From a virus, in IMG/VR virus record IMGVR_UViG_3300036945_000482, positions 1 to 47,892 of that record: a stretch of 47,892 nt of DNA; one strand, 5' to 3'. The translations under genes were made by a program, and so were the position numbers. Below are positions 13,696 through 17,517 of the stretch, piece after piece. The notes beneath the pieces are model-generated. The model was given only the letters and a program-made list of their open reading frames with translations. It had not been told where the DNA came from and ran no database searches. Position 1 is the stretch's first letter; each line of letters starts with the position of its first letter.

Positions 13696-15423
13696 TCACA
13701 GAATCTCGCAGGAACCGCCAGCGGTACAGGCAAGTTCCTTGGTGTTCACCGTGGCATCGTCCTTTTCGAAATCAGCAAGCTGATCCCAGTCGAACGTAGG
13801 CATGCGGTTTTGCAGTGCCTGGTACTCCGCCTGCGTGCACTCTTGGTAGGGTGCTTGCTGGTAGGAGTGGTCGCTGTGGGGAAGGAAGCTGACGCCTCCG
13901 ACTTGATCCCAGTTGCGATAGACCCAGTCACCGACTCCGAGCCACTCGTGATCCTTCACGTAGACCGTGATGGACACGTTGTGCTCACACCAGTTGCTCT
14001 GCACCATGAGGTAGTGCTCGAGCTGCTCGATGGCCGATCGATCGTTGCGGAAGACCGCATCAGTCGGGCCTTGCACCGGGAAGCTGAAGATGTCCGTGGT
14101 GGCCGGCTTCATCGCACAGTCTTCGACCGGGAATCCTTGCTGACGCATGAGCTGCGCCAGAGGATCCTTCTTGTCGGCTCGGACAGTGCGGATGTAGTGC
14201 TCCGAGTACCGGGGATGGATACCCGAAGCACTGTCCACCAGTTGGCTCACGGTGCCAGAAGGTTTGACGGTGGTGATGGCAGTCGCTGGCTTGATGCCCA
14301 GCATGGCAGCCCATTCCCGGTTGATGGTGATGGCGTGCTGCTTCATGGACACAAGCCACATTGCAGCTTGACTGTTGGTCTGGCTCAGGACCGGGTGGTC
14401 CATGATCCCAGTGAGGGACACACCCAGCAGACGCTCGTCTTCCTGGTTCTCCTTCCAGATCGGACGGATGTACCGGAAGTTGGTCAGCATCGACTGGTAG
14501 GTACCGATGATCGTGGCGATCTCGACCTTCTCCAGCAGAGTCTCAAAGGTGTCGTCATTGCGGACGACCACTTCGGAGAGGTTGCACAGCCCTGCAGAAC
14601 GCAGCGTGATCTCGGCACAGGGGTTGGTGCCAGCGATCTTGGTGTGATCCCTGCGGCCCGATGCCAGGGCCTTCTTGACCGCTGCTTCACGGTTGAAGAT
14701 GCCTCGCTCACCTGACTTGGATTCGACCAGGCTCAACCACTCCTTCATGAACAGCTCCATGTCGGGGCGTTCGGTGTAGGCCGCTGAGTTGTTGGCCAGT
14801 GCACGGTGGGGGTTGTTGATCCACCACTGACCGTTCTTGGCTCCACGCATCCTGTCGTCACTGAGGTTGGACAGGCTGATCAGGGCAGAGCGGCGGACGC
14901 CGCCTACCACCACGATGTCAGCGATCTTGCAGACGAGGTCATGGCATTCGATCGAGGTGAGCTTGCGGCCCACGGCACCTCGGAAGGTTTCGACTGCGAA
15001 CTTGAACAAGTCCACCAGGGGTTGAGGGCCGGAGGCCCGTCCACCGAATACCTTCAGCTTGGCTCCGGCAGGACGCACACGGCTGACATCCCACTTGGGA
15101 ACCTTGCCTGCGTACAGGTGGGAGAGGAGCTCCTTGAAAGCTCCAGCCCAGCCACCCTTGCTGTCACGAACCATGATGGTGTGATCGATCGGCTCCAGGG
15201 CTTCGACAGTCTCGATGCCCAGCTGACCGGTTTCACTCACCGTCACCTTGGCTCCAATGACAGGGAGCTTGGCGATGTACTGACGCTCGACACTGAAGCC
15301 GACACCGGTCCCGCAGTTGTGGACGATGCTGCCGTCTGCGAGGAGGAAATTGTGGGTGTCTTCGACAGTGATGTCGAAGTAGTCCTGCTCGTCGATGATG
15401 GGGGTAACGCTAGTGACCCTCAT
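13696..15423 (-). CDS. nrdJ: Class II ribonucleotide reductase, C-terminal part with C-terminal split-intein half
   Basis: Residues 1-36 are the C-terminal half of an intein: block F (YFDITVEDTHNF) and block G ending SIVHN before Cys37. The extein, residues 37-575, starts CGTGVGFSVE, the first active-site cysteine region of adenosylcobalamin-dependent reductase. NPCAEI at 267-272 holds the radical Cys269 and Glu271, and LCNLSEV has Cys280, the redox partner in the Lactobacillus enzyme family. The C-terminal cysteine pair (CTAGGSC) would be the reducing shuttle. The start is supported by AAGGAG seven bases upstream, inside the end of the preceding ORF. Joined to the N part, the reductase would be 646 residues, near the monomeric NrdJ/RTPR type. 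It supplies deoxynucleotides and is non-functional without trans-splicing. Confidence 0.9.
   Translation of the reverse strand: MRVTSVTPIIDEQDYFDITVEDTHNFLLADGSIVHNCGTGVGFSVERQYIAKLPVIGAKVTVSETGQLGIETVEALEPIDHTIMVRDSKGGWAGAFKELLSHLYAGKVPKWDVSRVRPAGAKLKVFGGRASGPQPLVDLFKFAVETFRGAVGRKLTSIECHDLVCKIADIVVVGGVRRSALISLSNLSDDRMRGAKNGQWWINNPHRALANNSAAYTERPDMELFMKEWLSLVESKSGERGIFNREAAVKKALASGRRDHTKIAGTNPCAEITLRSAGLCNLSEVVVRNDDTFETLLEKVEIATIIGTYQSMLTNFRYIRPIWKENQEDERLLGVSLTGIMDHPVLSQTNSQAAMWLVSMKQHAITINREWAAMLGIKPATAITTVKPSGTVSQLVDSASGIHPRYSEHYIRTVRADKKDPLAQLMRQQGFPVEDCAMKPATTDIFSFPVQGPTDAVFRNDRSAIEQLEHYLMVQSNWCEHNVSITVYVKDHEWLGVGDWVYRNWDQVGGVSFLPHSDHSYQQAPYQECTQAEYQALQNRMPTFDWDQLADFEKDDATVNTKELACTAGGSCEIL
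15316..15423 (-). other. C-terminal half of a split intein (36 aa)
   Basis: It begins with its own Met and contains the block F His (EDTHNF), the penultimate His and terminal Asn (VHN), followed by Cys as +1 residue. All residues needed for Asn cyclisation and extein ligation are present. Its length, ~36 residues, matches natural C-intein halves such as those of DnaE and NrdJ-1. Confidence 0.88.
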
Positions 15424-16664
15424 GCGAAGGCTCCTTGGTTCATTTGATTGCGGGCCTTGGTGTCCCGAATCTTTTGCTTGGTTTCTTCGGTGTGCTTGCG
15501 ACCGAAGAACGGGTTGGAGCTACCGGTCGTCTGCTCACGAATCTGTGCCTTACGTTCGTCCGAATGCTTTCGACCAAACATGGGGTTTTTCTCACCGAGA
15601 TTGCGTTCACGTTGGGCTGCTTGGTACTCAAGCGTCTGCCGGGTTTGAACGATCTTTTCTTGGGCTTTGGCCAGCACAGTGCGCTGTGCATCGCGGTGTT
15701 CATCAGAACGCTCGTAAGCGTTTTCAGAAGCGCGTTGCCGCTGCTCCGCAGTCCACTGGTAGCCGGGAGCACCTTCTCCACCGATAGTGGAGTTGTAGCC
15801 AGCCGCCACGGTGTTGTCTTGAGCAATCCAGTAGCACTCCTTTTCAGTTGCTTCCTGAGCTGAGAAGGCGAAGTCAATCACCTCTACTTGCCACACGTCG
15901 GCACCATGCTTGCGCAGTGCCTTAGCGAAGTGCCAGTCGGAGGGTTGGGTGTTGGCGACATACAGATGTTCCTTGAAGCGAGCTTCCGCTGTCTTCGAGG
16001 TCTGACCGATGTACGCCTTGCCGTTGACCTTGTTGGTGATGCGATAGATCTGGTGGCTGGGAGCCGTCAGGTCGTCATCCGCCGTCAGGTCACCTGCCAT
16101 GACCCAGCCACGGTTGATGGTGAGCCACTTGTGGTCGGCTGTGCATTTGACGGTGTGACCGTTGTCCAACGTGATCTGGACTTTTGGCTTGTGGGCCGAC
16201 TTGGTCTTGATCTGGTTAGTCACGGCCTTCCAGATGGACTTGCCAGTGGCTTCGTCAATCGAGGCAACCTCATCACCGATGGCGATGTCCGCGATCCTCT
16301 TGTTGCCAGCACGGGTCACCACCAAGGTGTCCGGGTGGAAGCACATCAGGATGTACAGGATCTCATCGAAGGCCCGAGGGTGATCCACAGCCACGAAGCT
16401 GCAGTTGAAGCCTGCCATGGGATCCCGCTCAAGTGCAGGGCCTGCGGTCATCAGCGCACGCATGGAAGGCATGGCACCCAGGCTGAGGATGGCCTGGTAG
16501 ATCCGCTCGGTGGGGTAGTGAGGGAACTTGCTGGCGAAGTACTCGACGTAGCGTCGGACGGTTTCCGGCCAGTGCTCACGACGCTGGAGATCGGGACGCC
16601 ACTTGGCATACCGGCTCTTGTGGACGTAGTCCTGCAGAGGGGTTGGGAGAGAGGGTGTCGTCAT
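15420..16664 (-). CDS. nrdJ: Class II ribonucleotide reductase N-terminal part, N-intein half and GIY-YIG endonuclease
   Basis: Residues 1-107 are the reductase N-terminus (GAMPSMRALMTAG, FNCSF, DEILYILM). Residues 108 to ~203 are an N-terminal intein half: Cys108 in block A (CFHPDTLVVT), GDEVASID, and block B GHTVKCTADHKW with the TxxH. Residues ~204-290 are a GIY-YIG nuclease (QIYRITNKVNGKAYIGQTSK, Arg in ARFKEHLY, Glu in EKECYWI, GYNSTIGGEG). Residues ~350-405 hold two NUMOD3 DNA-binding repeats (NPMFGRKH and NPFFGRKH). The ORF ends TGA, overlapping the next ATG (ATGA). In an ordinary intein the endonuclease would run on into the C-half; here translation stops and restarts. A large hairpin lies upstream at 16710. 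Confidence 0.88.
   Translation of the reverse strand: MTTPSLPTPLQDYVHKSRYAKWRPDLQRREHWPETVRRYVEYFASKFPHYPTERIYQAILSLGAMPSMRALMTAGPALERDPMAGFNCSFVAVDHPRAFDEILYILMCFHPDTLVVTRAGNKRIADIAIGDEVASIDEATGKSIWKAVTNQIKTKSAHKPKVQITLDNGHTVKCTADHKWLTINRGWVMAGDLTADDDLTAPSHQIYRITNKVNGKAYIGQTSKTAEARFKEHLYVANTQPSDWHFAKALRKHGADVWQVEVIDFAFSAQEATEKECYWIAQDNTVAAGYNSTIGGEGAPGYQWTAEQRQRASENAYERSDEHRDAQRTVLAKAQEKIVQTRQTLEYQAAQRERNLGEKNPMFGRKHSDERKAQIREQTTGSSNPFFGRKHTEETKQKIRDTKARNQMNQGAFA
15423..16055 (-). mobile_element. GIY-YIG homing endonuclease domain fused to the N-intein
   Basis: The catalytic module and the two NUMOD3 repeats are typical of free-standing or intron-encoded phage endonucleases, and GIY-YIG is rare inside inteins. 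It remains in frame with the N-intein, so after splicing it would be released attached to that half. It probably cleaves intein-less reductase genes. Confidence 0.8.
15431..15436 (-). promoter_or_regulatory. Internal ribosome binding site for the C-intein/reductase ORF
   Basis: AAGGAG on the minus strand lies seven bases before the ATG at 15423 and within the last codons of the upstream ORF. It matches the AAGGA-type sites of neighbouring genes, so the break is a designed restart rather than a sequencing slip. Confidence 0.8.
16056..16343 (-). other. N-terminal half of a split intein
   Basis: Blocks A and B are intact (Cys1, and Thr plus His of the TADH motif), followed by RGWVMAGDLTADDDL, the usual end of the N-terminal splicing domain. 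About 96 residues, like other natural N-intein halves. The insertion point is directly before the reductase's first active-site Cys, which also serves as +1 nucleophile. Confidence 0.88.
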
Positions 16665-16782: not shown

Positions 16783-17517
16783 TCAGTATTCCCCGCGAGT
16801 CAGTGCAGCCCAGGAAACCGGGTACAGAGGAGCGATGATTTCGTCCACCATGCGAGCCAGGTCTTGAACTTCTTTTTGAGCGTGGCTGTTGCTGCGCTGG
16901 TTGTAGAAATTCGCATAGGCGTACAGGGAACCTGTCCATACCCAGTTGACTTCACAGCCCTGGGGCAGGATGAATCTGGCTTGCTCGGGGCAGATGCCGT
17001 CAGCCAGCATCCGCTCGTAGAGAATGATTGCGCCGTCGCAGTGGTTGGCGTAGCGAGCATTCCAATCCAGTGCTCCCGGATGAACATCGCCACTGCCTTG
17101 CTTGACGTTTTCTGCCTTGCTGCGAAACGTGGGGAGGAAGTACTGCGGCCTGGTCGAGATGTAGCGCCGGCTCTCCTCGCTCTCCACAAACCCGATCTTG
17201 TGCTTGAAGCACTGCACCCGGATGGGGATGGGAGCCTGCATCCGCAGAGAGATCTGAGGGTGACCGAAGGGAACCCAGTGCTCCGGGATGTTGCGAAGGT
17301 AGACGGCCAGCTCTTCAGCTTGGGTTTTGCTGAGCTCGTCACGAAGTTTGTTGATCAAAACCAACCAATCTCCGCTGGCCATACCCCGAGCCAAGAATCG
17401 AATCAGGTTGTTGTTCTGCTCCGGGGTGAAGTTCTCAGCCAGCTTGGCGAACGACTGACGGGCGAAGTTCGCCACGTCTTGGTCGGTGAGATAGTGGTTT
17501 TCATACTGGGCTTGCAT
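16783..17517 (-). CDS. thyX: Flavin-dependent thymidylate synthase ThyX
   Basis: The 244-residue protein has the ThyX signature in slightly altered form: FKHKIGFVESEESRRY in place of RHR-x7-S-x-RY, with Glu-Ser and Arg-Arg-Tyr kept and Lys for the first Arg. Further conserved parts are HWVPFGHPQISLRMQAPI before it and ARFILPQGCEVNWVWTGSLYAY, where the substrate Arg/Gln region lies. ThyX methylates dUMP to dTMP using FAD and methylene-tetrahydrofolate. With the reductase next door it completes dTTP supply. AAAGGAAG precedes the ATG. It is the outermost gene of the leftward block and faces the + strand late cassette. Confidence 0.85.
   Translation of the reverse strand: MQAQYENHYLTDQDVANFARQSFAKLAENFTPEQNNNLIRFLARGMASGDWLVLINKLRDELSKTQAEELAVYLRNIPEHWVPFGHPQISLRMQAPIPIRVQCFKHKIGFVESEESRRYISTRPQYFLPTFRSKAENVKQGSGDVHPGALDWNARYANHCDGAIILYERMLADGICPEQARFILPQGCEVNWVWTGSLYAYANFYNQRSNSHAQKEVQDLARMVDEIIAPLYPVSWAALTRGEY

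What the first reader, a model, noticed from the sequence alone, without database searches (positions are those of the whole stretch)
13696..16664. Split-intein ribonucleotide reductase with a GIY-YIG endonuclease fused to the N-intein
Seen: reductase N-part, intein blocks A and B, a GIY-YIG nuclease with two NUMOD3 repeats, then TGA overlapping ATG of a second ORF that begins with intein blocks F and G and continues into the reductase. AAGGAG lies seven bases before that ATG. All splicing residues are present (Cys1, TxxH, block F His, His-Asn, +1 Cys), and the +1 Cys is the enzyme's own first active-site cysteine. Known: 'fractured' genes with split inteins and endonucleases between the halves have been described from phage metagenomes (Dassa and colleagues), but with other endonuclease types and free-standing. 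Inference: a contiguous intein was split by stop-restart, leaving the nuclease on the N-half and making dNTP supply depend on trans-splicing.
Basis: partly seen in the sequence, partly recalled or inferred. Interest (0 to 1): 0.92.

Follow-up and report, generated by a model that had tools for sequence, protein, structure and literature searches.

The report
Split reductase gene carrying homing nuclease
A phage gene for making DNA building blocks is cut into two overlapping genes by a self-splicing protein element whose first half carries the DNA-cutting enzyme that lets the element spread; four distant phage relatives share the layout, so it is a real, evolved arrangement and not a sequencing error.

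Summary
The finding is real. On the minus strand, ORF1 (16664-15420) encodes 107 residues of a class II (B12, RTPR-type) ribonucleotide reductase, an N-intein and an I-TevI-like GIY-YIG nuclease with NUMOD3 motifs. ORF2 (15423-13696) starts at an ATGA overlap with a 36-residue C-intein and continues into the reductase. Four divergent IMG/VR phage contigs (L083, L084, L085, L104) carry the same fused layout at the same site, so it is not a read error. In all 11 nuclease-bearing loci found, the nuclease ORF stop overlaps the C-half start by 1-17 nt in either alternate frame, and 10 of 11 have a Shine-Dalgarno core. That supports stop-restart coupling and argues against programmed frameshifting. 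Host-gene and intein trees conflict (AU p=0.0001), so the element has moved horizontally. (2) GIY-YIG nucleases in fractured genes are already published (AceL NrdHF). (3) No contiguous GIY intein was found, so 'contiguous intein then split' is unsupported. Verdict: new variant of split-intein fractured genes. Trans-splicing and cleavage are untested.

The parts
15420..16664 (-). ORF1, 414 aa: N-extein + N-intein + GIY-YIG nuclease
   Evidence: same architecture in L083, L084, L085, L104
16344..16664 (-). N-extein, reductase residues 1-107; Cys88 aligns with RTPR Cys119
   Evidence: RNR_Alpha, 1L1L alignment
16065..16343 (-). N-intein (Cys108 to about residue 200), blocks A and B
   Evidence: TIGR01445 at 16119-16343, Intein_splicing, Hint-type strands in the model
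15792..16055 (-). GIY-YIG catalytic domain, I-TevI-like, catalytic residues all present
   Evidence: PF01541, 1mk0/1ln0
15450..15599 (-). two NUMOD3 DNA-binding motifs (approximate span)
   Evidence: PF07460, 2 stretches, 4.9e-15
15431..15436 (-). AAGGAG ribosome-binding core for ORF2, inside the ORF1 coding sequence
15420..15423 (-). ATGA stop-start overlap between ORF1 and ORF2
   Evidence: overlaps of 1-17 nt in all 11 nuclease-bearing relatives
13696..15423 (-). ORF2, 575 aa: C-intein + C-extein
15316..15423 (-). C-intein, 36 aa, blocks F and G, ends in His-Asn
   Evidence: TIGR01443, alignments
13699..15315 (-). C-extein, 539 aa, starts with +1 Cys
   Evidence: TIGR02505 2.4e-80, PHROG 367 1.5e-149, 1L1L

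Best explanation
A mobile, naturally split class-1 intein sits in a phage class II ribonucleotide reductase gene (nrdJ). ORF1 makes N-extein + IntN with a GIY-YIG/NUMOD3 homing endonuclease as its C-terminal tail. Ribosomes ending at TGA restart at the overlapping ATG, aided by an AAGGAG inside ORF1, and make IntC + C-extein at a linked rate. IntN and IntC associate, splice in trans, and release a 646-residue reductase plus an IntN-nuclease:IntC complex. The nuclease cuts nrdJ alleles lacking the element, and repair copies both intein halves and the nuclease into them. Shown here: the architecture, intact splicing and nuclease residues, conservation of layout and restart signals, and horizontal movement. 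Inferred: trans-splicing, cleavage, and homing as the cause of movement.
For: Domains and motifs. Same fused layout in four loci with only about 41-51% identity in the intein-nuclease part. I-TevI catalytic positions Tyr, Tyr, Gly, Arg, His, Glu, Asn are kept as Y207, Y218, G220, R229, H233, E276, N291. ORF2 starts at the usual split site with a 36-residue IntC. All 11 nuclease-bearing loci overlap nuclease stop and C-half start by 1-17 nt; Shine-Dalgarno core before 10 of 11 starts against 30 of 322 interior ATGs. A contiguous mini-intein relative at the same site (L109) models as a complete Hint fold, pLDDT 90.9, best PDB match NrdJ-1 with TM 0.81. The IntN-nuclease model matches the I-TevI catalytic domain, TM 0.84 of target. 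The window's nrdJ lies inside a clade of intein-less genes (100/100) while its intein groups with L083-L085 (100/97); AU test rejects those four as one reductase clade, p=0.0001. [quoted passage not shown]
Against: No splicing, cleavage or expression data. Nearest intein relatives are only about 50% identical, so a recent transfer into this genome cannot be shown. The AU group was named after the intein tree was seen, and some rows have long branches. The reductase could in principle be dispensable to the phage.
Confidence: 0.82

Rival explanations
1. A single contiguous intein whose frame is broken by a sequencing or assembly error.
For: The frames differ by one base and this contig's reads cannot be checked.
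Against: Four independent contigs break at the same place; the C-half start has a Shine-Dalgarno core and overlap in nearly all relatives; ORF2 begins exactly at a canonical IntC with Met.
Confidence: 0.02
2. Programmed ribosomal frameshifting joins the ORFs, giving a contiguous cis-splicing intein.
For: Overlapping ORFs in an alternate frame can look like this.
Against: Both relative frames occur (6 loci one way, 5 the other); the C-half frame upstream of the start is not conserved and is closed a few codons upstream in L083 and L104; no slippery heptamer was seen by eye at the window's junction; IntC starts carry Shine-Dalgarno cores.
Confidence: 0.03
3. A decaying or non-functional reductase: the two fragments no longer splice, or they assemble without ligation as in phage Aeh1 NrdA pieces.
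For: A split phage reductase that works as two peptides is known (described in PMC3653736).
Against: All splicing residues and both extein parts are intact in five divergent loci; the intein lies in the CGTGVGFS strand and unspliced halves would carry about 93 + 36 extra residues there plus the nuclease (inference).
Confidence: 0.1
4. The nuclease arrived in an already split intein as a free gene and later fused to IntN (split first), rather than a contiguous nuclease-bearing intein being split.
For: Free-nuclease forms with the same GIY subfamily (L130, L100) lie outside the fused clade, which is 99/98; no contiguous GIY intein in any of the searched ORFs; the break before IntC is present in all 11 nuclease-bearing loci while the break after IntN is present in 6.
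Against: Trees are unrooted and partly unresolved; intein and nuclease trees place L104 differently, so recombination blurs the order.
Confidence: 0.6

Closest known systems
Fractured genes with split inteins (Dassa et al. 2009, doi 10.1093/nar/gkp095; full text not held, known from memory and from citing papers)
   Same: Phage DNA-metabolism enzyme gene broken by a split intein with a homing endonuclease between the halves; nrdJ is among the hosts.
   Different: There the endonuclease is described as free-standing; here it is the C-terminal part of the IntN polypeptide and the two ORFs overlap.
AceL NrdHF split intein (PMC7891396)
   Different: Class 3 intein without Cys1, in the beta subunit gene; no fusion of the nuclease to IntN is described (98-aa IntN).
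NrdJ-1 split intein (PDB 8ubs)
   Same: Best structural match; split intein in a class II reductase.
   Different: Different insertion site (from memory); no nuclease on the half.
I-TevI and group I intron GIY-YIG endonucleases
   Same: Catalytic domain and NUMOD3 tail.
   Different: Carried by group I introns or free genes; here fused to an intein half.
PI-PfuI split artificially with its endonuclease (cited in PMC7090010)
   Same: A nuclease-bearing intein working in trans.
   Different: Engineered, LAGLIDADG type (from memory).
Klebsiella phage KP13-7 nrdA (L087, GenBank OP617745)
   Same: Split intein with GIY-YIG nuclease ORF between the halves.
   Different: NrdA, free-standing nuclease, annotated only as hypothetical.

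Membership tests
Naturally split class-1 intein | Cys1, block B TxxH, block F, terminal His-Asn, +1 Cys/Ser/Thr | tested here: met
Naturally split class-1 intein | Two separate ORFs split at the usual endonuclease site, IntC about 35-40 aa with own start | tested here: met
   36 aa IntC, ATG and AAGGAG
Naturally split class-1 intein | Trans-splicing activity | not testable with these tools
   needs expression
Fractured gene (Dassa type) | Conserved enzyme gene broken in two by a split intein | tested here: met
Fractured gene (Dassa type) | Free-standing endonuclease gene between the halves | tested here: not met
   nuclease fused in frame to IntN; relatives L130, L100, L132, L137, L142 do meet it
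GIY-YIG homing endonuclease | GIY-YIG fold with catalytic Tyr, Arg, His, Glu, Asn | tested here: met
GIY-YIG homing endonuclease | DNA-binding NUMOD tail | tested here: met
GIY-YIG homing endonuclease | Cleaves intein-less allele and drives homing | not testable with these tools
   only horizontal movement shown
Contiguous endonuclease-bearing intein | One ORF through both exteins | tested here: not met
Class II RTPR-type reductase | RTPR profile and conserved cysteines | tested here: met
   TIGR02505 2.4e-80, although below its full-length cut-off because split; Cys119 equivalent; NPC..E..C motif aligned

The most novel reading that the evidence does not exclude
The nuclease is held on the N-extein-IntN precursor until the C-half arrives, so trans-splicing controls both reductase assembly and release of the homing nuclease, and the overlap fixes the ratio of the two halves: a split intein in which homing is gated by splicing. 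With free-nuclease, fused-nuclease and nuclease-less contiguous forms at the same or adjacent insertion sites, it would also give a readable record of split inteins forming and healing.
Probability: 0.15. Interest if true: 0.78.

Novelty: new variant of a known kind. Interest (0 to 1): 0.6.

Why it matters
How split inteins arise, and whether they can revert, is mostly argued from scattered examples. Here one reductase strand offers empty alleles, contiguous mini-inteins, split inteins with a free nuclease and split inteins with the nuclease fused to one half, across related phages. One pair (L142, L143) shows a split intein healed by losing its nuclease gene while 98% of the intein DNA stayed the same. 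The fused form is a natural counterpart of engineered trans-splicing inteins that keep their endonuclease and may give new split inteins for protein ligation.

Tried and rejected
Sequencing error and programmed frameshifting: rejected with relatives. Scan of genomes with the C-intein profile: the best hits match only about 35-46 residues at 39-59% identity and were not followed up. Phage collection searches: no cultured phage carries this intein at this site, only intein-less nrdJ and unrelated GIY-YIG genes. The pattern VHNCGTG also hit unrelated proteins and chance frames. Sinorhizobium phage phiM6 looked like a possible carrier but has an uninterrupted nrdJ. Co-conversion or target-site inference from flanking DNA: flanks resemble intein-less relatives and give no clear tract. 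GC3 of the nuclease part is 0.63 against 0.76-0.83 for intein and exteins, a weak hint of later arrival that I do not rely on. Dassa 2009 could not be opened, so whether a fused case was already noted there is unverified. Metagenome contigs could not be scanned.

Full report
WHAT IS THERE. The window is a 47,892-base IMG/VR virus record. On its minus strand two ORFs overlap by ATGA. ORF1 (16664-15420, 414 aa) has reductase residues 1-107, an N-intein from Cys108, a GIY-YIG domain (residues 204-291) and NUMOD3 motifs, then TGA. ORF2 (15423-13696, 575 aa) starts with a 36-aa C-intein ending VHN and continues with 539 aa of reductase from Cys37. The reductase is the monomeric B12-dependent RTPR type (TIGR02505 2.4e-80; PHROG 367 1.5e-149; 1L1L). 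It is the only reductase, GIY-YIG and intein hit on the contig. Next upstream lies a thymidylate synthase gene (16783-17517).

IT IS REAL. The 80 best viral reductase relatives have this site uninterrupted. Searches with the intein-nuclease and C-intein profiles found four other contigs with the same fused layout at the same site: L083, L084, L085 and L104. They share about 41-51% identity with the window in the intein-nuclease part, so they are old relatives and not copies of one assembly. A profile scan of the ORFs of 60 codons or more in every locus fetched up to then found exactly these five distinct IntN-GIY fusions and no ORF that also contains the C-intein.

THE JUNCTION. In all 11 nuclease-bearing loci (5 fused, 6 with a free nuclease ORF; two of the latter nearly identical) the nuclease stop overlaps the C-half start by 1, 4, 14 or 17 nt. 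Six use one alternate frame and five the other. A Shine-Dalgarno core of at least 4 nt lies before 10 of 11 starts, against 30 of 322 interior ATGs. This fits termination-reinitiation coupling and does not fit a conserved frameshift signal.

FUNCTIONAL RESIDUES. Cys1, TxxH, block F, His-Asn and +1 Cys are kept. The GIY-YIG residues corresponding to I-TevI Tyr6, Tyr17, Gly19, Arg27, His31, Glu75 and Asn90 (I-TevI numbering from memory) are kept in all five. The AlphaFold model of IntN-nuclease (mean pLDDT 79.7, pTM 0.43, so domain packing is unsure) has the I-TevI catalytic fold (TM 0.84 of target) and weaker matches to inteins for the half domain. The contiguous mini-intein relative L109 models as a full Hint fold (pLDDT 90.9), with NrdJ-1 as best match.

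A CORRECTION. Alignment to 1L1L puts Cys88 (FNCSFVA) on residue 119 (NNCWFVA), the RTPR redox cysteine, 20 residues before the insertion. The +1 position is Cys in 52 and Asn in 28 of 80 relatives. Where the host has NG in place of CG, the inteins seen (L137, L142, L144) sit two residues further on and use Thr as +1: the native nucleophile seems to fix the insertion point.

MOBILITY AND HISTORY. The window reductase falls in a 100/100 clade of intein-less genes; its intein groups with L083, L084 and L085 (100/97), whose reductases are elsewhere in the tree. The AU test rejects those four reductases as one clade (log-likelihood 211 lower, p 0.0001). The group was named from the intein tree, so this is a test of congruence. 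Independent evidence comes from L142 and L143: intein DNA 284/290 identical while the reductase flank drops to roughly 80%. L143 lacks the nuclease gene and is one contiguous ORF in which the former C-half leader (RKRNS) and start Met are now translated. L109 is also contiguous and keeps the Met. So split inteins of this family have healed at least once. The opposite step, a contiguous GIY intein being split, has no example here. Fused nucleases form one clade (99/98) with free L130 and L100 outside it, which favours free nuclease first and fusion later, but the trees are unrooted and the L104 intein groups with free L100 (93/93), which implies recombination or a second fusion.

MECHANISM. Most likely: coupled synthesis of the halves, trans-splicing into a 646-aa reductase, release of an IntN-nuclease:IntC complex, and homing into empty nrdJ alleles. 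Architecture, conservation, restart signals and horizontal movement are shown; splicing, cleavage and homing are inferred.

KNOWN OR NEW. Split inteins in phage reductases with an endonuclease between the halves are the fractured genes of Dassa 2009 (not readable here). A GIY-YIG nuclease in that role is published for AceL NrdHF (PMC7891396) and present unannotated in Klebsiella phage KP13-7. A statement that phage R2 inteins are all LAGLIDADG while introns carry HNH or GIY-YIG (PMC8772380) shows how unusual GIY-YIG inteins are thought to be. What I did not find described is the nuclease fused to IntN with an overlapping restart, conserved across phages. I file it as a new variant of a known kind.

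Noticed in passing
L084:5825-8764 and L104:11967-14848: A second split intein at KPSG|C...HN|T, with an HNH-type ORF between the halves, so these nrdJ genes are in three pieces needing two trans-splices.
   Followed up: partly
L142:2360-3700 and L143:1-600: Near-identical inteins, one split with a free GIY-YIG gene, the other contiguous after loss of that gene, in reductases about 80% alike at DNA level: a healed split intein.
   Followed up: yes
L109:2765-6739: One nrdJ frame of 1324 codons with several cis inteins plus an N-intein at its end (KPSG|A/C site); the mini-intein at our site keeps an internal Met where split relatives start IntC.
   Followed up: partly
L087:960-6565 (Klebsiella phage KP13-7, OP617745): nrdA in several pieces with two split inteins, a free GIY-YIG ORF and another putative nuclease ORF; annotated only as hypothetical proteins.
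   Followed up: partly
L137, L142, L144: Reductases with Asn instead of Cys at +1 carry the intein two residues downstream with Thr as +1 nucleophile.
   Followed up: partly
L138:4127-8808 and L117:3521-6855: A different B12 reductase type has a split intein at the equivalent strand (LLQG|C...HN|CGVGF) with another kind of putative nuclease between the halves.
   Followed up: no
L130:4888-7785 and L091:3-5028: A further split intein at the NPC motif (NPC|C...HN|SEI) with a nuclease-like ORF of another family between the halves.
   Followed up: no
L113:565-2949: A Walker-A type gene (GGAG|C...HN|SGKG) broken by a split intein with ORFs between, in a phage contig.
   Followed up: no
window 15423-16064, minus strand: Nuclease part has GC3 0.63 against 0.76-0.83 for intein halves and exteins.
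   Followed up: partly
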